Shown here: one piece after another, positions 47,572 to 64,000 of the stretch
Layout of the letters: every line of letters begins with the position of its first letter
How positions within the stretch are numbered: the first letter of the stretch is position 1
DNA from: Chiua virens
Taxonomy: Eukaryota; Basidiomycota; Agaricomycetes; Boletales; Boletaceae
Reading direction: 5' to 3'
Assembly: GCA_019787685.1 (NCBI GenBank)
Contig: JAHNUO010000004.1
Span: forward strand, 372,001-436,000
DNA length: 64,000 nucleotides
Made by a program: the position numbers and the translations under genes
Notes under the pieces: model-generated
Seen by the model: the letters and a program-made list of their open reading frames with translations, nothing else
Database searches by the model: none
Told to the model about the DNA's origin: nothing

Positions 47572-49965
47572 ATGACCAGTCAGCAAAATGTACGGAAGGC
47601 AATCGAAATCGATGGGAGAGATGAAATCCATTCAGTCGCGTTCCTGATGGAGGGCAAACACGTTTTGAGTGGAGGACAGGAAGAGAAAATTCGACGATGG
47701 CGATTGAAGGACGGCAAGGAAGTTGGACAGCCAATAGATGTGGGGGGTTGGGCCAACACCATTGCAATATCAGAAGATGGGAAATGGATTGTGGGCGGTT
47801 CGGATGAGGGACGTGTGTCGGTGTGGAGTGTGGAGAGCCACGAGCGGGTGGGCAAGACGAAAGGACACCGAGAAGGAGTGAAGTCGGTGGACATCTCGCC
47901 AGATGGGACCAAAATTGCTAGTGGATCATTTGACAGTACCGCCTGCATCTGGAAGCGGTCGACGGGCGAGCGACTGCTGACACTACGACATGACGACTGG
48001 GTGGCCGCGGTCAAATTCTCGCCGGACGGGCGTCTTCTCGCCACCGCTACCTGGGATCTCTCTGTTCGTGTTTACAACAGCGAGAATGGCCGTCTCCTCC
48101 ACGAATTCTTAATCCAACCTGGTTCAACTTTCAATCAATGCCTTGCGTGGAACGACGACACACACCTCTACGTCGTCTCTTTAGACGGTATAATCCACCT
48201 CATTGACGTCTCCACTGGAGAAACACTCTCACAGTGGCCCATCCGCACTGACAGCATGCAAAAACGGGGGTGTATCGCTCTGCCATACGATCGCCGCTTC
48301 ATCGCGACCTCTGCCAACTCATCAATGTCGTTCTGGGATGCAACAACGCGCACAAAAATCGGGTCTGACATCGACTACGATGACCGCATCTGGACAATGG
48401 CGATTTCAGAAAACTACGACATTGCAATCGGTCATGGCAAGACAGTCACCGTTCGGAACCTCGGTGATATCCTCCCTCCTCGTTATGTTCACAATGTAAG
48501 TGTACCTCCTGATATGGGCCTCATTAACTCGATTTCCACTCACAACCCCCAGCATATGGATCCCGGAGAAAGAATGGCGTCTCATCGTACACAGGCAGGT
48601 GCGTGTATCACCCAAACTAGTCTAGACCATCAGCACGCTGACGCCGGTTTTCTGACACCTGAATCCATCACATGAAGAGATCACCGACCTCAAGAAAGCC
48701 ATGCGGGAACTGAAGGATCAACTTACAGTGCTCCAAGGCAACCACGCGGCGCAGTCGCGCGAACTCGTCTCGGCTCAAAAGGAGCTGAAGACCTTGAAAT
48801 CATCCATTAGAACCAAAGACCGCCAAATTGATGCCCTTACTGCCAACGTGGACCACTGGGAAAGTGTCAATGTCGCCAAAGCAGAGGACCTCGCTGCTGC
48901 GCACAGAGAACTCGAGGAACGCCGTCGCGATTCAGAGGAACTCATCGCCGTCCGCGAGGAATTACAGTTCTCCCAATCTCAAACCATCAAGATCCAGGAA
49001 TGGTACGACGAGCAGTTTAGACATCTCAAGTCCGTCGTCGAACAAAGTCAGCGTACGCCATTTCTCGTGCAACATTTCATCGGTCAGGCGGACGCACGTG
49101 CGGAGATGAATATCATCGAAACACTCCAACAACTCAACGAGAGGATAGATTGGAGTTCCACATTCATCGCGGATCGTATTATTCACAATTTCCAGCCCAG
49201 CGCTACGAACGCGACGGAGGAACAAGTTTCTATTGCAGCGAGAGTCACTGAATGCATCGGACAATCCCTGGTGAACCGGTTACGGAGTAACTCACGCGCC
49301 GAGGTCGTTACATATCTCCCTATCGCCTTTCGTGCTTATCTCATCTATCACCTGTGCGGGATCATGTCCTCGTGGTCCGTGGATAGCGGGCCCGATCGGC
49401 TCATCCGTGAATTGTACAGCATAGTCCGGAAATTAGGTGAGGAACTAAATCTCAGCACGCCAATTGATTGTTATACTGATGGTGAATAATAGAGTCACAA
49501 ACCATATCTGCCCGCTGGCGATCGCTGACCTACGCTTCTCTCTCGCCGACCTGTTCGAGCAACCCGAGCATGCTTATCACATCTACGATGGACGGACTTT
49601 CTGATATCATTGTCACCGCCGGCTGTGCCCCTTCCACCTCCGCTGCGAAAGAGATGATCACATCTAAATTCTGGGGTCGGATATCCTTTATCCTCACCAC
49701 CGCGGGGCAGCTCACCAAGTCGATCATGGACGCACTGTCCGCCGACTATCGAGTCGAGGCGATTCGTCCACCGAAGATGTCAGATAGACAAACAATGGAA
49801 GTCGACTCGACTGGTGCAGGGAAAAAGTCGAGGAGCCAGTTTGTGTTGTGCACCACGCAGTTGGGATTGTCAAAAGAGGTCATCACGCAGTCAAACGTCG
49901 GTCCCAACAAGAAGAATATCCTTGTGGTGACGAACGTCGTCAAAGCAAAGGTCATCACGGGATAA
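47572..49965 (+). CDS. WD40-coiled-coil protein of the mushroom accessory type
   Basis: Four exons (47572-48495, 48553-48598, 48678-49436, 49493-49965) encode an intact 733-residue protein. Residues 1-308 form WD40 blades (EIHSVAFLMEGKHVLSGGQE, GVKSVDISPDGTKIASGSFD, WVAAVKFSPDGRLLATATWD). A heptad-rich coiled coil follows (ITDLKKAMRELKDQLTVLQG to about residue 450), then an alpha-helical part (FLVQHFIGQADARAEMNIIE) and a C-terminal module with SDIIVTAGCAPS, FWGRISFIL and FVLCTTQLGLSKEV. I have the impression that this last module recurs in Agaricomycete accessory proteins but cannot name it. WD40 propeller plus coiled coil suggests a scaffold. It borders a transposon relic and a second WD40 gene. 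Confidence 0.75.
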
Positions 49966-53449: not shown

Positions 53450-55860
53450 TACAGTGCGACCTGCTTCAGGGACAGTGGAGTCGAATATCGGAAGATGGTG
53501 TCATCAAGCCACCCAGCATTCATTGCAATATCCCCAAGGTTCTCTGGCTTGCCTAAGAAACGACAAATGATGGTATAAACGATACCCTGCAGTAGCATAA
53601 GAGCACTCACTAATGACCCATTCTGCCTCTGCACGATCAGGACATTCCTGCCCCGCTAATTCGTCCACCATTTGGCTAAAACACCCGCTAGCATCCGATT
53701 CACGATTGATCATCTTGAGCTATTCGCACATGACCCGATAGGTCGCAAATCTCGGAAATTTGATCATAAGAGCGACGGGGCGTGCAGAAACAACTTGAAG
53801 AGGGAACACTCACTCCTACAGCGGCAGTCAAGGCATCTTTCCATGAGCCACGAGCCGATGTCGCTCTTGCCCACTCTTTCAAGAGTGTCATGAAACTTTG
53901 TGAATCAATTGATACTTCAAGCTTTGGCATTTGATCTTGCCAGTTCACATCCTCGTCGCTTTGGGGAGTAACGAGGTATCATTGAGTGAAATCTGCGGCC
54001 GTATTGAAGTGTGAAAACCAACAAGTTCAACATGAACACACTCGAAACCCCTTCAGTGCGCTCTTCATTCAGACATACTTCTTCGCCGAAAGTATTAACC
54101 ATCTCCAAAAGGGCATCTCCTGCCCGCTTCGTATGACCCTCTGCTTGCAGGGCTTCACAGAAACGTTGTTGAATTACGATGGAGAGATCATCGAACTTCC
54201 ATCCGTATATCTACCAAAAATGGTGAGAGGTTCTGATGATGCGTTACTAGATAGCAAGACGGGAGCTTACCAACGATACCAACGAAGCTTGACCTAATGC
54301 TGCATCTGAACTCGTGCATGCTCCAATAATTGTATCACACTGGCAGACCCATACTCACTGTTCGCTATGTATGAGTTTGCTAGGAGAAGCTGCATGTATG
54401 CCTGTAAAAAAAAAATGGTGATACTTCCCCAAGGGCAGTTCTTCACGTGCACACCTGAACCACATAACATACTGAGTTGAGGGGGACCGTGGCGATGAGG
54501 TCGTCGGGGCGGGATATTGCATCGTCATGGTCACCGGCCATAAATATGATTATGGCCTTAAGCGCAATATGTAAGTGGGTGTCGAACGAACTTTCAAGAC
54601 CATGGAGCACACACCTTAACCAAAGGAAGAAAGCTAACATGAGATGAATGAGCGTGTTGAAACGCGATATCGCATAGGCGGTACCCCTCGTGTTTCAAGT
54701 TCTCCCCTTTGCCAACAAGGGCGACGCTCATCGCGATATAGCTGACGACGGAGGGGTGAATCCTGAGGGACTTGATTTAAGCTACGATCGATGTCAGTAT
54801 ATACGATTGAAAAACAAGGAATACCTTTTCGACATCCCTGATTGGAAAATAAATGGTGACAAGGATTTTCGGAGATAGTGACAGTTAATGATGCTTCCGC
54901 TTCTGCGAGTTGATCGTTCTTCCATAGGTTGAGGACGGTGTCGTCAATCTGGATATCGGGTTCCTGGAATGCGACAGAGATACGAAGACAAGGATCAATC
55001 GATCAGATGCAACATAAAAATAAGACCGAAATACAATACCTACACAGATGCGTAGACATTTGACGCAGATCTTCCCTTGCTCTCCACCAATGGCAAGAGA
55101 CCGGTCGTCTGTCAGGAATGCGATTGAACATATCTCTTGAGGGTAATGAATCGAACCAAGCTCACTTTGCGCCAAAACATCCCAAAATGTGACGGTACGA
55201 TTTGCAGCGTATGCGAGAAACTGTTGCTCTCCTGAACTGAGTCCCATTCCGAAAGCGTTGACCCAGCAGATGGGTCAATTTTCTGGATTTTGCTGTTGGA
55301 AGTGACGAAAATATAATCGTCCGACGAGAGTAAATTGGGTTTGGTGCCGGCCATGAGTTTTACCGGGATGTCCAGGATCAACTGACCATCGTTGCTGTCG
55401 TGTATGCGTATGGATTCCCAAGTTAATGTAGCGACGCGATCACCTTGAGGTGAGAATCGAGTCCAGTGAGGTCGTCGTCGTCATCCCAGAAGGAAAACAC
55501 CTGTCAGTACGTATTTCCATCCACTCTGTCCAGCCTATGCCCGTTGCGATCCGCTTACCATCATTCGAGAAGACGAGACACCCCGTACACCTGTCTGTTG
55601 CAGGGTCTACGGCGGACCATTTTCCATCTGTGGCCTGCTGCTTTTAATCTCCACCTAGTGAAAACGTCAACGCAGATAGCGAGTGGCCAGTGTCGATTTC
55701 GGTACTAGTAGCCGAGTGGCAACCTTGTCAGATGGCGAGCATTGCAAGTGGGTGAGAGCGATTGCAGCAGGAAACTCGGAGGGAGTCGTGCACCCTGGGT
55801 GCATATCCCTAACCAAACCTTCGAAAGGCTGTGCGTTTACGAAATCTGATATAGCCAACT
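53450..55860 (-). pseudogene. WD40/TPR-family gene, probably decayed
   Basis: Minus-strand exons give WD40-like blades (ALTHLQCSPSDKVATRL, DRCTGCLVFSNDGKRIATG, SIRIHDSNDGQLILDIPV, RTVTFWDVLAQSELGS, ICSIAFLTDDRSLAIGGEQG), then TPR-like helices: IQIDDTVLNLWKNDQLAEAE, GYRLCDIAFQHAHSSHVSFL, IIIFMAGDHDDAISRPDDLI, YMQLLLANSYIAN, WKFDDLSIVIQQRFCEAL. This series is the WD40 plus TPR-like architecture expanded in ectomycorrhizal and other Agaricomycetes; function is unknown. An in-frame TGA at 53979-53981 interrupts DFTQ-stop-YLVTPQSD where related genes, as I recall them, have arginine, a CGA-to-TGA change. Downstream the frame degrades. Outer boundaries and the N-terminus are approximate. Confidence 0.55.
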
Positions 55861-56144
55861 ATATGCGAAACTTCCAAGTACCGATCGACCTGAAAGTTGG
55901 TGTCACAACACAGGCCGACGATGCGCATGCGTAACCAATGGAACTGACGCACAAAGACGTCTCGATAAAACTCTGTCGACCCGAAATAACACGAAAAGAT
56001 GCCGTTCCAAAATGAAGAACAGTCCTAATATGATCACCTTGACACGTGCTCATGAGAAGTTGAGAACGCAGCTAGTCCTTAGAGACGAAACATGATTGCA
56101 TCCTGTCTCTTATCTCTTATCTCTCACTTTGACGACTCGTCGGA
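55861..56144. other. Intergenic / divergent promoter of ADH
   Basis: A pyrimidine-rich run with TCTCTTATCTCTTATCTC precedes the ADH start. No other gene is supported, though the first exon of the WD40/TPR gene may lie here. Confidence 0.35.
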
Positions 56145-57778
56145 ATGCAATCTGTGGTGCGCTGGTACCCTCCCGCATATGATATCCGCGTCGAGGAGGC
56201 CCCTATCCCAAAGTAAGTTTGTTCGTCCAACGTAGCGAAACAATCGTTGTGACGTTTGCTTCAATTATGCAGAGTAGAGCACCCTGACGATGCGATCGTC
56301 AAAGTCAAGGTATGCACATCCTGCAGATGAGTGCTATGACATTTGGATCATGGACCCTTTGCTATGTAGCTTGCAGGGCTCTGTGGCAGTGATTTGCATC
56401 TCTATCGCGGGACTGACTCGGAAAGGGTGACAGAACCGTGAGTCGCCAACGTATAATGTTCATCAACATTTTTTCCAGACGAACATGCAATCTACAGCTT
56501 CATTTGTGGGCATGAATTCACCGGGGAAGTGGTCGCACTTGGTGCAAATTTTCACCCCGGCTCCACCGGTCGTCCACCACTCTACTCTACTCTCAAAGTC
56601 GGAGATAAGGTGGTGTCGCCATTCACCGTGTCCTGTGGAGAATGCCAGTATGTCTGTCGTGATCTCAGTCTTCCGTCAGACAACTCTCATGATCTTCTTC
56701 ACTAGTTATTGCCGTGTTGGTTTCACTTGTCGATGCGTTGAAAGCCGTCTTTTCGGAACGCCGCACACGCCAGGGGGGCAAGCTCAGTACGTTCGCATCC
56801 CTCGTGCAGGCGGAACACTCTACAGCCTCGAAGAAATATCTATTCATGTTGTCCAAGAGACTGAACACACGATCGGAAAACTCGCCGACTCGTCACTTCT
56901 GTTGCTATGCGATATCTTACCAACGGGCGTATTCGCGGCATTTCAGGCGTTGAATCACCCAAAGACGCAGCCAATGCTGACATCGAGACCATACCCTCAG
57001 GGTCCGGAGGTATCCGTACTTGACGATGGTGTTTCAGTCCCATTTAAAACAGAAGACAAGATCTTGACAATCGCGATTGTTGGTCTGGGGCCGGTAGGAG
57101 TGGTATGTCGATTTGCTCGCTGTGCTGGAAAATATAGTTGATACAGTCATGAACGAGAACAGTGCGCATGCATCGCGTTGCTCGACTTGCTTTATGCGCG
57201 AAACGTAGAGTTTCGCATTGTCGCGATTGACCCGACAGAAGTCCGACGAAAGAAAGTGGGAGCTATATACGCCAAGATATCTGGGACATATGACAAGCAG
57301 TCAAATGGCCACCTGGAGGTATCCGACATCGCAGCCAGTAAGGATATCGTAGCGAAATGGACGGAAGGAATCGGATGTAATTCCGTTTTGGAGGTCAGTG
57401 TGATGTCATCCATGGTTGGAATCGACCTCATCCCTGTGATAGGTTGTCGGAAACACAAGTGCTCTCTCACTCGCGTACGAGTTGGTGAGACCATTCGGAT
57501 GTATAACTTCGGTAGGGGTACATGCAGGGCGGCAAGTGCCATACACTGGTCGGGAACTGTACGACAAGAACGTGTCATTGGACTTTGGACGTTGCCCAGT
57601 ACGAGCAATGTTCCCTATGGCGCTTGGCTTGCTACTCCGCAGACAGGATGTCTTTGGAGAAGTAGGGGGAGAGACGAGTCTGGTAGAGAAGATTGTTGGA
57701 TTTGATGTAGCGGCAAAGGCGTACGACGATTTCGACAAGGGAAGATGTGGTAAACTGCTATTTGATCCGTGGATGTGA
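56145..57778 (+). CDS. Zinc-dependent alcohol dehydrogenase (atromentin-cluster type)
   Basis: Starts MQSVVRWYPPAYDIRVEEAP. Exon 3 gives AGLCGSDLHLYRGTDSER with the first zinc-ligand cysteine. Then come ICGHEFTGEVVALG (GHE motif) and VSPFTVSCGEC spliced to HYCRVGFTCRC (structural-zinc cysteines). The NAD(P)-binding fold shows ILTIAIVGLGPVGV spliced to CACIALLDLL, and the C-terminus reads GNTSALSLAYELVRPFGCIT, FGRCPVRAMFPMALGLL and AAKAYDDFDKG. A medium-chain dehydrogenase of this type commonly accompanies quinone synthetase genes in mushrooms, as here with the gene at 59202. At about 56430-56480 the junction between EP and DEHAIYS does not keep frame, so an indel or unusual splice is suspected. 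Other junctions are in frame. Confidence 0.82.
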
Positions 57779-59066
57779 AAACTTCTGTGTTCGTCATGAG
57801 TTGTATGTACAGCATTAGTGAAGAAAGAAACCATTCAATGGTCTTGACTAGGAACAACCGGTGAACACGCACATGTTATGTAAATGATTTCGCTAATGAA
57901 AATCAATTAATTACTTATGCAATGCATGCAGCACTGCATGGCGAACCGTCGGGTGGGACCGTTGAACAACTTTGTCGGTCTGACGTTCAACGTGCACACG
58001 AATGGACATATGTACTGGAAGTTCTTGAACCAGATCGGATCAGAAATGCATCTGCAAGGCGCGTGGGCCTTCCAGTAATAGAACTACATCACTTATAGTC
58101 AGTTGGCCATCACCGCTTCCAAGTTCCAATGAATTGTTTGCCACGAAAGCTAAAAATGGCGCAAACTGTCATGCATGATGATGCACGTATGTAATATACT
58201 GTCATGTTTTGGCGGCGGCAGTAGTCATTGACTTTGGCCGCCGCATCGCAAAATCTGACAATGACTAGCCTCCGTTGCCACAGTCACCGCCGCCTGGACC
58301 GCAGCCAGCTTGAACATGCGTCCATGTGTTGCTATCAAGATCGAAATCATACTTACAAGAGAGTCTCCGCAGCTTCAATTCGTCCGACTCTGCCAACAAA
58401 ATTTGAAAGATCGTCGGAACATGCACTGGACTAGTCGGACCGAGTCACTGGAGACCACCGGGGAGGTATTGAATACCGAACCGGCGGAACTTGGGCGGCC
58501 AGGCTATCGGCGTATGTCTGCCCCGCGCTAGGAAATGAGTTGATGCGCGCGGCAGGGAAGTCCAGTAGGAACGGAAGACCAATCACAATCCACCGACTTG
58601 TGAGCTTCTCCGTCAGACCGTTTATGACCGAACCGACTGACTTGTTTAAACTAATGCGATGTTTCATCAGTGCTATCGGCGATGCACGAGCTAGTGTACT
58701 AGTCCCACCAATTGGCAACCATTTCACTGCTCGACTTCATCGCCGGCCTATCAGTTTCCATTCCAGGTTGGTCATGTCTACTTGGCTCGACAGCTTTAGG
58801 GCTTTTGTCCACCTTAACGTCCTCCGTCGCTCAGCAGTGCCTTGAATATCACAGACACGGCCCTGTATCGCTACATTCTGTTCATCCGACCCCGATCGGC
58901 ACTGCATTACGGAGGGTGAGCGGAAGTTTGACAATGATTCATCCATGATTGACACGTAACTCACCTTCTTCTCACCTCGTTTTGGTTTTGAAATCATTCT
59001 ATTACACAGCCATGCGCGCGTTCACCGGGATCAATCCCGAAGGTCATTTGCCTTCCATAGAAAGCA
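57779..59066. other. Promoter region of the quinone synthetase
   Basis: No gene is supported in these 1.3 kb. It separates two same-strand genes of the presumed cluster and probably contains the control region of the synthetase. Confidence 0.4.
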
Positions 59067-59074
59067 TATAAAAG
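59067..59074 (+). promoter_or_regulatory. TATA box of quinone synthetase
   Basis: TATAAAAG lies 135 bases upstream of the ATG, leaving room for a pyrimidine-rich leader (TCTTCTCTCATAG). Confidence 0.6.
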
Positions 59075-59201
59075 ATGGGTGGTTCGAGCAGATTTGACAA
59101 TCACACTCCTCAAGTCCTTTCTTCTCTCATAGACGCATCTCCTAGACACTTCAGTTCTCAATCACTCAGCTTACTCTCGCATACATTTATCATTATTATC
59201 C

Positions 59202-62200
59202 ATGGCTTCCGTCGCAGTTTCCTCTGTTGCCCCTCTCTCGAAGTCCCTTCCAACGACTTTAATTGATCTCCTCTCTCAGGCGATCTCTCAGCACCCCGAG
59301 CATGAGCTCAGCTTCATCACTTCCTCTGCACACGACTCTTCTATCCAGACAAAGACCTTCAATCAATTCGCTCAATACGTCCTCTCTCTCGCAAAGGCTC
59401 TCCGTGCCTGGGCCAAGCCCGCTGGCTCAGTCGTCGTCGTCTACTTGACCGAACATGAGGACAATATGGCTGCTATTTGGGCCTGTCTGCTCGCTGGTTA
59501 CGTGCCTTGCTTGCAGCCCGCCTTGAGTGCCCAGCAGGCTCACAAGGAGGGTCACGTTGCTCACATAAAAAACCTCTTCTCTTCAGCCATCTGGTTGACG
59601 AGCGAGAGCGGCGCCGACCAAGTGCGGTCAATCTCTGGCCTCGACATTCACTTGTTCTCCGAGCTGAAGGCCGCAGCTCAGACGATGGTCCTCGCGGACT
59701 TTGCCGTCCATCAACCCAAGCCTGACGACGAAGCAGTTCTCTTCCTGACTTCTGGTTCCACCGGATTCTCCAAGGCTGTCGTGCACACGCATAGCACCAT
59801 CATCACTGCATGCTACGCCAAGGGCGAAAACTATGGCCTTACCCCCCAATCCAAGGTTATGAACTGTAGGTGCTAGGATTCCCTATGAAGCGTTGCTGTA
59901 CTAACAGTTTATCAGGGGTTGGATTCGATCACGTCGCAGGATCTCTCGAGATGCACATCACGCCCCTCTTGTACGGTGCTTCGCAATTGCATGTCCACGC
60001 ATCCGCCATCCTCTCGGACCCCCTGAGGTACCTTCGTCTGATCGAAGAAAAGGTTTGTAACCGACAACATTTCTGACTCCACACGCTCACCACTTCGTCC
60101 CCACTCAGTCAATTGAAGTCGCCTTTGCACCAAACTTCTTGCTTGCCAAGCTTACACGCGACCTCGAAAAGCGCACCGAGCTCTTCGGTCAATTCAACCT
60201 CTCCTCTCTCAGACGCGTCAACAGCGGTGGTGAAGCTGTTGTCAGTAACACTGCCGTCGCTTTCCACAAGACCTTGAAAAACCTTGCGAAGAACGGCGAT
60301 GCCTCCTTCGTCATTTCTGCTGGTTTCGGTATGACAGAGACTTGGTAAGTTTCTGGTGTACATTCAAGTGTTTGCATTCTAAGTGGACATGTATATAGCG
60401 CTGGATGTGTCTACGACCCTATCAACGTTTTGGTCACGCCTCCCGCGTACGAGTTCTTGGAGCTCGGCAAGCCAATTTCCGGGTGTGAGATGCGCGTCGT
60501 AGACCCCGAGGACGGTGTTACTCTTCGTCCCGACGGTCAAAGTGGGGAACTTCAAGTCCGCGGCCCTATGATCTTTGTGCGGTACTACAACAACCCCGAA
60601 GCAACCTCTTCGAGCTTTGTCGAAGGTGGCTGGTACCGCACCGGCGATGTCGGCATCATCGAGGACGGAAAGATGAGACTCAGCGGCCGTATTAAGGACA
60701 CTGTCATTGTTCACGGTGTCTCGTACGGTATCCCCGAGTTGGAGACTCATCTTCAGACTGTCGAGGGTGTCACCCACTCGTTCCTCGCTGCCTCACCTTA
60801 TCGTGCGCCAGGCCAGGAAACTGAAGGCTTCGTGGTTTTCTACGCGCCAACCTTTGACCTCAACAGCGAGGATGCTCCCGCCAAGCTCTTCGCTACTCAC
60901 CGTGCTCTGCGCGATATCTCCATCAAGATGATCACTCTCCCACCGCAAGTCATCATCCCCATTCCCTCCGATCAGATGGAAAAGACCACCCTCGGCAAGC
61001 TCTCGAGAGCTCGCCTTGTCAACCAATTCAAACAGGGCGGGCTTGCCAAGCATATTGCTCGCGCCGAGGAGTTGTTGGCCGTCGCTCGTGGCGCTAGCTT
61101 CGTTGTTCCTTCTACTGAGACCGAGAAGACCTTGGCTCGTATCTACGCGGACATCTTCAACCTCAACGTGAGCGACATCTCTGCTAGCGAGAACTTCTTC
61201 GAGCTCGGCGGTACTTCCATCGATGTGATCAGACTCAAGCGTGATGGAGAGGCTGCATTCGAATTGCCCGAGATCCCCACAATCCAGATCCTCAAGCACC
61301 CCGTTGTTTCCAGCCTCGCCAAGTACGTCGACTCCCTAATCTCCAAGGATGCAAGCACCGAGGAGTACGATCCTATCGTCCCCCTCAACCTTACCGGTAA
61401 CAAGACCCCCATCTTCATGGTTCACCCCGGTGTCGGCGAAGTTCTCATCTTCGTCAACCTCGCCAAGTACTTCCAGAACGAGCGACCCTTCTACGCGTTC
61501 CGCGCGCGGGGCTTCGAACCCGGTCACCCTTTCTTCGGTTCCATGGACGAGATGGTCTCCTCGTATGCTGCTGCTGTCAGGCGCACTCAGCCCCACGGAC
61601 CCTACGCCATTGCCGGCTACTCATACGGTGGTGTCGTTGCCTTTGAAGTTGCGAAGCGCCTCGAAGCCATGGGCGAGGAAGTCAAGTTCACCGGTCTGAT
61701 CAACATCCCGCCTTATATCGCCGACCGCATGCACGAGATCGACTGGACGGGCGGTATGCTCAACCTGTCGTATTTCCTTGGCCTCGTGAGCAAGCAGGAT
61801 GCCAACGACCTCGCACCGTCTTTGAGGTCTCTCACTCGCAAGGAGCAGCTTGATATCGTCTGGAAGTTGTCGCCCCCCGAGCGTCTCATCGAGCTCCAGC
61901 TCACCCCTGAGAAGCTTGACCACTGGGTTGACATTGCGGGCTCGCTCATCGAGTGTGGTAAGACGTACGAACCCGGCAGTTCAGTCTGTAAGTCACCCTT
62001 CAACTCGCTGCCTCGCCTTTGCTAAACATGCTTGGCTTCTAGCTTCCCTCGACGTCTTCTACGCCATCCCGCTCCGCGGTAGCAAGGAGGACTGGTTGAA
62101 CAAGCAACTCAAGCCATGGGGCGGATTCAGCCGTGGCGAGGCCATGTACACCGACGTCCCCGGACAACACTACACCTTGATGGACTTTGATCACGTCCCC

Positions 62201-62248
62201 GGCTTCCAGAAGATCTTCCGTAGCCGCCTCGAGGCACGCGGTCTCTAA
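59202..62248 (+). CDS. Atromentin-type quinone synthetase (A-T-TE NRPS-like enzyme)
   Basis: Five exons (59202-59865, 59916-60052, 60109-60344, 60399-61987, 62043-62248) give an intact 943-residue enzyme, the usual size. The adenylation domain shows LTSGSTGFSKAV (A3), GFGMTET (A5), GWYRTGDVG (A7), GRIKDTVIVHG (A8) and TTLGKLSRAR (A10). The thiolation motif FFELGGTSIDVI holds the phosphopantetheine serine near residue 619. The thioesterase has IAGYSYGGVVAFE with nucleophile serine near residue 755 and GQHYTLMD with the probable catalytic histidine. There is no condensation domain. Known enzymes of this layout (AtrA, InvA, GreA) activate 4-hydroxyphenylpyruvate and join two molecules into atromentin, the precursor of mushroom pigments such as variegatic acid. 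Other products (polyporic acid, furanones) of related enzymes cannot be excluded. Confidence 0.92.
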
Positions 62249-62669
62249 ATGGAGTCTGGGCGGATAACTATAAGGACAAGGGTCTGGTGATGATTGGGCA
62301 ATGTTGTACATACGACTTATACCGTGATCTCTATCTAACAGCATTGTAAATGCAGGCTTCAGCAACGCACGTATATATGCTAGACCTACTATTTCGACAC
62401 ATTTTTGTATACACGCAACCGTCCGCACGATGTATTGACACTTCAGAATTTTTATATTCTTGTCTTCGGAGTTGGCGCTCGACATGATTCGACAGTAAAC
62501 GCTTGGTATGGCAGTTGTAACAATCATTAATCCGATCGATCACACAGTTATTTCTGCTCATCTTTAAAAATTTAAGGCTCTATTGGAGATGCATGGAACA
62601 CATGGTCTATCTTGTACTCCTTAACCGTGCCTAGGACCTTCCATCGCACCTATCATCCCCTTTGTCTCT
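62249..62669. other. 3' flank of quinone synthetase
   Basis: AT-rich transcript-end sequence; no gene is supported. Confidence 0.4.
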
Positions 62670-63153
62670 CTAAGCGCCCGTCTCACCCGGCCAAGAACGA
62701 TAACCTTCTTCAGTGACACACCGCATGGTTGCAGAATAAAATACACCGTCTGCGAATGAATGATCGCTCGAGACAACATTCATCGCCCAAGATTGAGCTT
62801 ACTCACGTTGCAAAAGGTCAGATTTGGAGAAGCGGATTCCGTCAAGGCAGAAGGGGCGATTGCTCGGCTGCTGGTGGAATGATTCAATAGTTAGTACGAT
62901 GTGGTGGAAAACCAGTAAGATACCTCAAGCGGCAAATGAACAAAAGCTTACCTCCAGATTAATGGGACAATTGATGATGAACCCGCGCTGCTTAGAACTG
63001 CTACAGTCTCTGGCGAATGCATGCCAAAGGAAGTAAGATGGGTCCTATGGGAGCTGTGCGCCATGCGCGAGGGCCTGGGTGCCGTGGTCCGAGACAATGG
63101 AAAGGGTCGCAGGGAGCGCAAAAGCAAGAGGGAAAGAGAGGACAGGGGACATG
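62670..63153 (-). CDS. Possible small secreted cysteine-containing protein
   Basis: The minus-strand ATG at 63153 begins MSPVLSFPLAFALPATLSI, a plausible signal peptide. A short intron (GTCTCG...CCATAG) would join it to DPSYFLWHAFARDCSSSKQR and GFIINCPINLE, a second intron to PSNRPFCLDGIRFSKSDLLQ, and a third to a last exon containing MRCVTEEGYRSW with a stop at 62670. The model gives about 90 residues with four cysteines. A TATATAAA box lies about 50 bases upstream. The first donor is not consensus; without that intron the frame meets a TAG. No family is recognised, so this stays a candidate. Confidence 0.35.
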
Positions 63154-63200
63154 ATTGTCTGACGGCAACTAGAGTAAGACAAAGGCGATGGGCAGGGTCA

Positions 63201-63208
63201 TTTATATA
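63201..63208 (-). promoter_or_regulatory. TATA box of the small secreted protein candidate
   Basis: TATATAAA on the minus strand, 48-55 bases before the candidate ATG. Confidence 0.45.
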
Positions 63209-64000
63209 GCCTCAGCCATCCATGTTGACGTCGGTTAGGCGGAAGCATTGCAGTCAGCCTCTTGCAGAATGGAATTCAAAAATCGAAACCTCCAGCCTGA
63301 GACGGCACCGATCTTGTAGCTCAAACGTCAACTTCACCAGGTGTAAGGTTTCCATCAGACCTACAAGATTTGCATGAGCTCATCAGCACGCGATGTCATA
63401 ACATGAATAACTGTTTGTCATACCAATGGACTTCAAGAGACGCGAAATTAAAAGACTCCTACACGATATTGTGGCGAATCTGGCGATCTTGAATGAGTAT
63501 GTACTTGAGGATTATGATGACGGATTGGATCTCAATAGTAAATACAATAAGCTCGCATGCCTTCTTACCTTCCTCTGCGAACTTCCCGCCAATTGCTAAC
63601 TGACATCGTAGTGTGACTAACGCAAGCGCAGGATCAACGGTCATAGTATCCGAAACCTGAAAGTCGGAGGAAGCCGAATCCACTGTCGACGGTACCTGCG
63701 TAGGCTACAAGTAGTTTTGAAGATCGAGCGGATCTCTCGACACAAACGCGATCTAAGCTAGCACGCATTTGATCCTAATGGACTATAGCCACAGTCCAAC
63801 AATCTAAGCGATTTCACTCATGTAGAATTGTCTGAATTTCAATGTACCCATGCAATACAACATCTGAATCTGCCTACTGAATAAGCTATTTTTTCAATGC
63901 CTTGTCCTCGAAGATTAATAGATCATATAGTGTTGCAATCTGATTACCCTGAAGGACGGTAAGCAGTAGGGCCACATCAAACAGGATGAGACTTACCTTG
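63209..64000. other. Right edge, fragmentary minus-strand frame
   Basis: Around 63680-63500 the minus strand reads VSDTMTVDPALALVTLRCQL and a hydrophobic IIILKYILI, possibly an exon of a gene that continues beyond the window. I do not recognise it. No aminotransferase motif is visible here. Confidence 0.3.

What the first reader, a model, noticed from the sequence alone, without database searches (positions are those of the whole stretch)
56145..62248. Atromentin-type pigment cluster: quinone synthetase beside a zinc alcohol dehydrogenase
The 943-residue A-T-TE enzyme is intact, with all A-domain core motifs, the carrier serine and a GYSYG thioesterase nucleophile. The same-strand medium-chain ADH directly upstream fits the cluster composition known for atromentin producers such as Tapinella and Paxillus (synthetase, aminotransferase, ADH). 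The aminotransferase is not within 1.7 kb downstream or anywhere in the window, so the cluster is either split, extended past the right edge, or rearranged.
Basis: partly seen in the sequence, partly recalled or inferred. Interest (0 to 1): 0.75.

Follow-up and report, generated by a model that had tools for sequence, protein, structure and literature searches.

The report
Displaced copy of atromentin pigment synthetase
A bolete mushroom carries an intact extra copy of a well-known type of pigment-enzyme gene beside an apparently unrelated, widely shared gene, while the likely partner gene of the pathway lies near a sister copy elsewhere in the genome; it is an ordinary member of a known family with an informative duplication history.

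Summary
In detail: 59202-62248 encodes an intact 943-residue A-T-TE enzyme and 56145-57778 an intact 428-residue zinc dehydrogenase, same strand. The organism is Chiua virens (Boletaceae); public records hold both proteins at 100% identity, the first already named atromentin synthetase. Phylogeny, domains and code residues (V228, N305) fit an atromentin-type (4-hydroxyphenylpyruvate) synthetase.

The cluster reading is not supported. The dehydrogenase is the only intact copy found of a gene also present in many Agaricomycetes outside the Boletales; in 0 of 16 other Boletales species with both genes listed does it share a contig length with a synthetase.

The window copy thus looks like a lineage-specific duplicate beside a resident gene. 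The pair was later duplicated as an inverted ~7.5-kb segment about 304 kb away, where both genes are broken. The window copy remains under purifying selection (dN/dS about 0.06). Known kind; modest interest.

The parts
56145..57778 (+). Intact zinc-dependent medium-chain dehydrogenase, 428 aa, 7 exons (public name 'chaperonin 10-like protein', P0121); read as a resident gene, probably not part of the pathway
57779..58505 (.). Distal intergenic stretch, shared with inverted copy B (83.6% identical where aligned) but not with copy C
58506..59201 (+). Proximal upstream region of the synthetase, shared with copy B (92.4%) and copy C (80.9%)
59202..62248 (+). Quinone (atromentin-type) synthetase, A-T-TE, 943 aa, 5 exons: 59202-59865, 59916-60052, 60109-60344, 60399-61987, 62043-62248
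55860..63375 (.). Extent (with interruptions) of the segmental duplication whose inverted, decayed twin lies at C4:746279-739393

Best explanation
This is a functional-looking, lineage-specific duplicate of the Boletales atromentin synthetase. The A domain activates 4-hydroxyphenylpyruvate, the T domain carries it as a thioester, and the TE domain joins two units into atromentin (mechanism inferred from characterised relatives). The ancestral-type locus in this genome is taken to be on contig C9, where the 95%-identical copy C lies 12 kb from an Aro8-type aminotransferase that could supply the keto acid. Copy A with its upstream region came to lie beside a resident zinc dehydrogenase gene. That pair was later duplicated as an inverted ~7.5-kb segment (copy B), which has since decayed. 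Copy A would use keto acid made in trans. The dehydrogenase is most likely a bystander.
For: The 120 listed homologues are 71-100% identical; those with an organism name are all Boletales, many called atromentin or quinone synthetase, among them AtrA of Tapinella (P0079, 76%). A, B and C form one Chiua clade (support 1.0), next to one orthologue each of Butyriboletus, Lanmaoa, Imleria and Boletus edulis (support 1.0). V228 and N305 fall in the columns taken as code positions 1 and 5 (alignment to linear gramicidin synthetase); Asn at position 5 goes with 4-hydroxyphenylpyruvate and Val/Ile with phenylpyruvate in PMC10316625. Copy A departs from 1 of 431 nearly invariant columns, against 24 for the protein named inactive InvA4. 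dN/dS A-C is 0.061 at dS 0.41. The dehydrogenase does so in 0 of 16 other species. A/B share window 55860-63375; A/C share only window 58506-62394.
Against: No product or expression data. Inactive paralogues exist, and the one named inactive (InvA4) falls in a neighbouring branch of the same subgroup. The column count is a weak predictor of activity: Coniophora departs from 22, Paxillus P0076 from 17. Code position 5 is not decisive: the CorA Ile298Asn mutant stayed strict for polyporic acid (PMC10316625). Equal contig length shows linkage only, not adjacency; only 120 rows per search were visible; Imleria, Boletus edulis, Astraeus, Serpula and Suillus ampliporus aminotransferase rows did not match. 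The 66% cut was set after seeing the list; the 14 comparable Boletales rows below it (43-54% identity) give 0 matches. The order C before A is inferred. The cluster dehydrogenases of Tapinella, Serpula and Paxillus were not available for comparison.
Confidence: 0.78

Rival explanations
1. One reading: a genuine atromentin biosynthetic cluster (synthetase plus cluster dehydrogenase) from which the aminotransferase was split off.
For: Same strand, 1.4 kb apart; the pair was duplicated together; clusters with a dehydrogenase are described for atromentin producers (recalled; searches returned no paper, and the passages seen after search 37 do not describe it).
Against: The dehydrogenase family is listed from Agaricomycetes far outside the Boletales. 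It shares a contig length with a synthetase in 0 of 16 other Boletales species, while the aminotransferase does so in 6 of 11 comparable rows. No match to it in the fetched 30-kb stretches around copies C, D and E. In pair B it is broken, but so is the synthetase there.
Confidence: 0.12
2. A recently formed mini-cluster: the resident dehydrogenase was captured by the pigment pathway only in the Chiua lineage and modifies an atromentin-derived product.
For: Both genes are intact and conserved, same strand, co-duplicated.
Against: No word of 10 or more bases shared between the 600-base upstream regions. The dehydrogenase is unchanged at all 132 nearly invariant columns of its family, giving no sign of a new role.
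Confidence: 0.07
3. The synthetase has switched to another substrate or product (polyporic acid, furanone) or is inactive.
For: P0087 is named 'Inactive atromentin synthetase invA4'; single changes at code position 5 can relax specificity (PMC10316625).
Against: Asn kept at position 5, carrier and TE serines kept; 1 deviation at 431 nearly invariant columns; low dN/dS.
Confidence: 0.1

Closest known systems
AtrA, atromentin synthetase of Tapinella panuoides (P0079)
   Same: A-T-TE, Asn in the same NSGGEA motif, carrier and TE serines; 76% identity over the full length
   Different: AtrA belongs to a gene cluster with the aminotransferase AtrD (PMC12105029, passage seen); no such gene was found near the window copy
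Serpula lacrymans quinone synthetase (P0068; taken to be NPS3, not shown)
   Same: 78% identity, same motifs
   Different: Different subgroup in the tree
Copy C of the same genome (P0002, contig C9)
   Same: 95% identity, homologous upstream region
   Different: 12 kb from an Aro8-type aminotransferase; no P0121-type dehydrogenase found within about 14 kb
Clade I polyporic acid synthetases (CorA, HapA1/2, PpaA1)
   Same: Same tri-domain logic and chemistry (PMC10316625)
   Different: Those carry Ile/Val at code position 5 and form a separate clade (PMC10316625); the window enzyme has Asn. Their sequences were not compared here

Membership tests
Basidiomycete atromentin synthetases (clade II) | A-T-TE tri-domain | tested here: met
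   Pfam AMP-binding, PP-binding, Thioesterase
Basidiomycete atromentin synthetases (clade II) | Groups with AtrA and other Boletales synthetases rather than with clade I | tested here: inconclusive
   FastTree of 119 sequences (118 of the 120 listed hits, two under 850 aa dropped, plus pieces of copy E) mixes it with AtrA and Boletales synthetases, but no clade I enzyme was in the set, so exclusion from clade I rests on identity and code residues
Basidiomycete atromentin synthetases (clade II) | Val at code position 1 and Asn at code position 5 | tested here: met
   V228 and N305 by alignment; V in 115 of 119, N in 117 of 119. Which columns are positions 1 and 5 rests on the recalled LgrA code
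Basidiomycete atromentin synthetases (clade II) | Makes atromentin from 4-hydroxyphenylpyruvate | not testable with these tools
   Needs an assay
Atromentin gene cluster | Aminotransferase beside the synthetase | tested here: not met
   No match in C4:362001-466000; a candidate on C9 near copy C
Atromentin gene cluster | Dehydrogenase of the type conserved with the synthetase | tested here: inconclusive
   P0121 relatives share no contig length with a synthetase in 16 of 16 other Boletales species with both listed, but the cluster dehydrogenase sequences of Tapinella/Serpula/Paxillus were not at hand
Zinc medium-chain alcohol dehydrogenases | ADH_N and ADH_zinc_N domains, zinc ligands | tested here: met
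   Pfam; C40, H63, E64 and C104, C107, C110, C118 in columns at least 95% conserved among 119 homologues; ligand roles recalled

The most novel reading that the evidence does not exclude
In Chiua a pigment synthetase landed beside a resident zinc dehydrogenase and the two became a new two-gene unit, copied once as a unit, so that the dehydrogenase now tailors an atromentin derivative: a cluster caught while forming.
Probability: 0.07. Interest if true: 0.5.

Novelty: new member of a known kind. Interest (0 to 1): 0.25.

Why it matters
A dehydrogenase next to a synthetase is easily read as a biosynthetic cluster. Here comparison with relatives points to chance neighbours, and the likely pathway aminotransferase sits near a sister copy elsewhere. 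At least five synthetase copies in one genome, at different stages of retention and decay, are a usable example of how redundant pigment synthetases arise in boletes.

Tried and rejected
PF00155 searches of the genome gave the same 9 stretches and score only the best candidates. ORFs of 8 of these 9 loci were read (L013 is the second part of the L011 gene). By eye they look like household or related types (aspartate, alanine, HisC, ALAS, LCB2, BioF-like; L015 not named) and were dropped. An archaeal Aro8-like query then found the C9 gene, at weak E-values (6e-5 to 0.002).

C5:670-677k holds two further Aro8/KAT-like genes, 24-30% identical to the C9 enzyme over the longer aligned stretches; not followed.

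Gene conversion between A and B was considered because exons and promoter are more alike (92-98%) than the flanks (84-86%). Silent-site difference (16.2%) is close to that of the flanks (14-16%), so selection suffices for the exons; the promoter (7.6% different) and short introns differ less, for reasons not shown.

Shared promoter words between synthetase A, C or E and the aminotransferase do not clearly exceed 100 mononucleotide shuffles (C at 8 bases: 16, equal to the shuffle maximum); copy D shares a pyrimidine-rich word of 12 bases or more, not followed. Allelic copies or an assembly fold were considered for B: homology ends after about 7.5 kb and divergence is over 10%, so rejected.

Literature: search 21 (atromentin, aminotransferase, alcohol dehydrogenase) and one search returned no paper; one search gave three, of which two were seen in passages and one (PMC8403587) in the listing only. 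Passages of PMC9603100, PMC4332364, PMC12411881 and PMC7824621 do not describe the Boletales cluster dehydrogenase either. One search listed six papers naming Chiua virens, seen as a listing only; searches listed three and two, of which PMC12411881, PMC10316625 and PMC5061094 were seen in passages or parts.

Full report
What is there. The window is C4:372001-436000 of a 48.3-Mb, 136-contig assembly. Its synthetase protein is identical over 943 residues to a public Chiua virens protein on a contig of 2,635,601 bases, the length of C4, so the organism is taken to be Chiua virens, Boletaceae. Introns are 49-60 bases, all GT-AG.

What the synthetase is. Pfam gives AMP-binding, PP-binding and Thioesterase above cut-off. 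Of 2467 protein hits the 120 best are listed; those with an organism name are all Boletales, many annotated atromentin or quinone synthetase, and include AtrA of Tapinella at 76%. In a tree of 119 sequences (118 of the 120 hits, two short ones dropped, plus pieces of copy E; shown pruned to 34 tips) copies A, B and C of this genome form one clade (support 1.0), next to one orthologue each of Butyriboletus, Lanmaoa, Imleria and Boletus edulis (support 1.0). The wider subgroup also holds Hydnomerulius, Scleroderma, Pisolithus and Paxillus proteins, including inactive InvA4. In the alignment to linear gramicidin synthetase V228 and N305 fall in the columns that I take, from the recalled LgrA code, as code positions 1 and 5. 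PMC10316625 (text parts 1-4 of 7 and passages) reports Val at position 1 for keto-acid enzymes and Asn at position 5 for 4-hydroxyphenylpyruvate; exchanges there relaxed NPS3 and PpaA1 but not CorA. N305 is Asn in 117 of 119 sequences, V228 is Val in 115, the carrier serine is kept in 118 and the TE serine in 118. Numbering of NPS3 in that paper (Asn323) differs by 12 from the Serpula model P0068 (Asn311); I take this to be a different start codon, not shown.

At least five copies in one genome. The Thioesterase search gave ten stretches; tblastn with the window protein, run on the regions fetched around five of them, places A (window), B (C4:743797-740741, minus), C (C9:325293-322251, minus), D (C9:235171-238116, plus) and E (C7:1758516-1761517, plus). 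The other five stretches (C1, C19, C57, C28, C44) were not examined. Pairwise dN/dS with A: B 0.075 (dS 0.18), C 0.061 (dS 0.41), D 0.115 (dS 1.5), E 0.106 (dS 2.2). Copy B has four single-base insertions in coding sequence, which break its frame; none is in a long homopolymer, but an assembly error cannot be excluded. Departures from 431 nearly invariant columns: A 1, C 3, D 8, E 29, AtrA 6, Serpula 10, InvA4 24, Paxillus P0076 17, Coniophora 22; 44 of the 119 have none.

The dehydrogenase. It keeps zinc-ligand residues C40, H63, E64 and C104, C107, C110, C118 (roles recalled) and shows 0 departures at 132 nearly invariant columns among 119 homologues. Listed homologues span Agaricomycetes, e.g. 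Coprinopsis, Amanita, Mycena, Trametes and Lentinula at 56-61%. In this genome the only other close match found is the broken remnant beside copy B; the next are 35% identical (which scores only the best candidates). The extent of the loss in that remnant depends on the alignment: blastn skips the first exons and 459 bases of the 3' half, one MAFFT run leaves 625 of 1635 bases unmatched, another 230 of about 1288 coding bases, with 13 indels and six in-register stops, some of them in the poorly aligned 3' part. All agree that it is broken.

The aminotransferase. An archaeal Aro8-like query found three stretches of one gene at C9:337733-338743. The spliced model runs 339143-337382 minus, 510 aa, with one GC-AG intron. 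Its best solved-structure matches are Aro8 enzymes, and the lysine of the SFSK motif is present (its role is recalled). It ends about 12.1 kb upstream of the start of copy C, on the same strand. Between them, on the other strand, lie two tandem genes with ADH_zinc_N similarity (one above cut-off, one just below), then minus-strand ORFs that look to me like a major-facilitator transporter, without a Pfam hit. Among 12 named Boletales rows at 66% identity or more, six share their contig length with a listed synthetase: Hydnomerulius 454117, Scleroderma yunnanense 187943, Pisolithus marmoratus 254331, Suillus subluteus 917404, S. subalutaceus 292836, Coniophora 486702. Imleria, Boletus edulis, Astraeus, Serpula and S. 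ampliporus do not match; Leucogyrophana has no listed synthetase, so 6 of 11 are comparable. The cut at 66% was set after seeing the list; below it 15 named Boletales rows (43-54%) remain, 14 with a synthetase of the species listed, and 0 of these 14 match. No Chiua entry appears among the 120 listed rows, so the gene may be missing from the public annotation. PMC12105029 (passages) names AtrD as the transaminase of the Tapinella atromentin cluster; I could not compare with AtrD's sequence.

tblastn with three aminotransferase queries found nothing in C4:362001-466000, nor in the 30-kb stretches around B, D and E.

History. A and B share 55860-63375 of the window, with interruptions, in inverted orientation about 304 kb apart; A and C share only 58506-62394, that is the gene, about 0.7 kb upstream and a little downstream. 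Silent divergence of the synthetase between A and B (16.2%) is close to that of the dehydrogenase (14.4%) and the distal intergenic stretch (16.4%), so one duplication event fits. Simplest order: the C9 copy is ancestral; a copy of gene plus upstream region arose beside the dehydrogenase; the pair was duplicated and inverted; copy B decayed. The first step is inferred. Judged against four Boletaceae orthologues, A- and C-specific protein changes since their split are similar (16 and 15), so neither looks relaxed.

How it most likely works. Shown: domains, motifs, relatedness, purifying selection. Inferred: activation of 4-hydroxyphenylpyruvate, loading, and TE-catalysed condensation of two units to atromentin, with keto acid supplied in trans by the C9 aminotransferase or household enzymes, and the dehydrogenase as a bystander.

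Verdict. A real, intact, ordinary atromentin-type synthetase, already annotated as such in public records. The cluster reading is replaced by a displaced duplicate next to a resident gene. Interest is modest.

Noticed in passing
L027-L029, L044 (C9:322251-339143): Candidate true cluster: synthetase copy C, two tandem ADH_zinc_N-type genes (72% alike in a tblastn match that spans an intron), transporter-like ORFs, and an Aro8-type aminotransferase absent from the listed public Chiua proteins, with a GC-AG intron.
   Followed up: partly
C4:746279-739393 (L021-L023): Inverted, decayed twin of the window's dehydrogenase-synthetase pair; the public gene model (P0011, 878 aa) leaves out stretches that copy A has.
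   Followed up: yes
L031 (C7:1758516-1761517): Fifth synthetase copy E, 58-67% identical by stretch, GYSFG instead of GYSYG, with a possible frame change near residues 134-141.
   Followed up: partly
C9:318665-318592 (L028): A 77-base fragment resembling the 3' end of the synthetase gene, 3.6 kb from copy C.
   Followed up: no
L045, L046 (C5:670-677k): Two neighbouring Aro8/KAT-like aminotransferase genes, distant from the C9 enzyme.
   Followed up: no
C19:53819 / C57:59462 and C28:234039 / C44:127969: Thioesterase hits with equal scores on pairs of contigs, suggesting duplicated or haplotype contigs in the assembly.
   Followed up: no
window 47572-48675 (+) and 54885-55381 (-): WD40-repeat-like ORFs (by eye) left of the dehydrogenase gene.
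   Followed up: no
P0116: PMC5061094 (passage seen) states that Coniophora puteana is the Boletales exception without quinone synthetase genes, yet a 71%-identical Coniophora protein is listed, with an aminotransferase on a contig of the same length.
   Followed up: no
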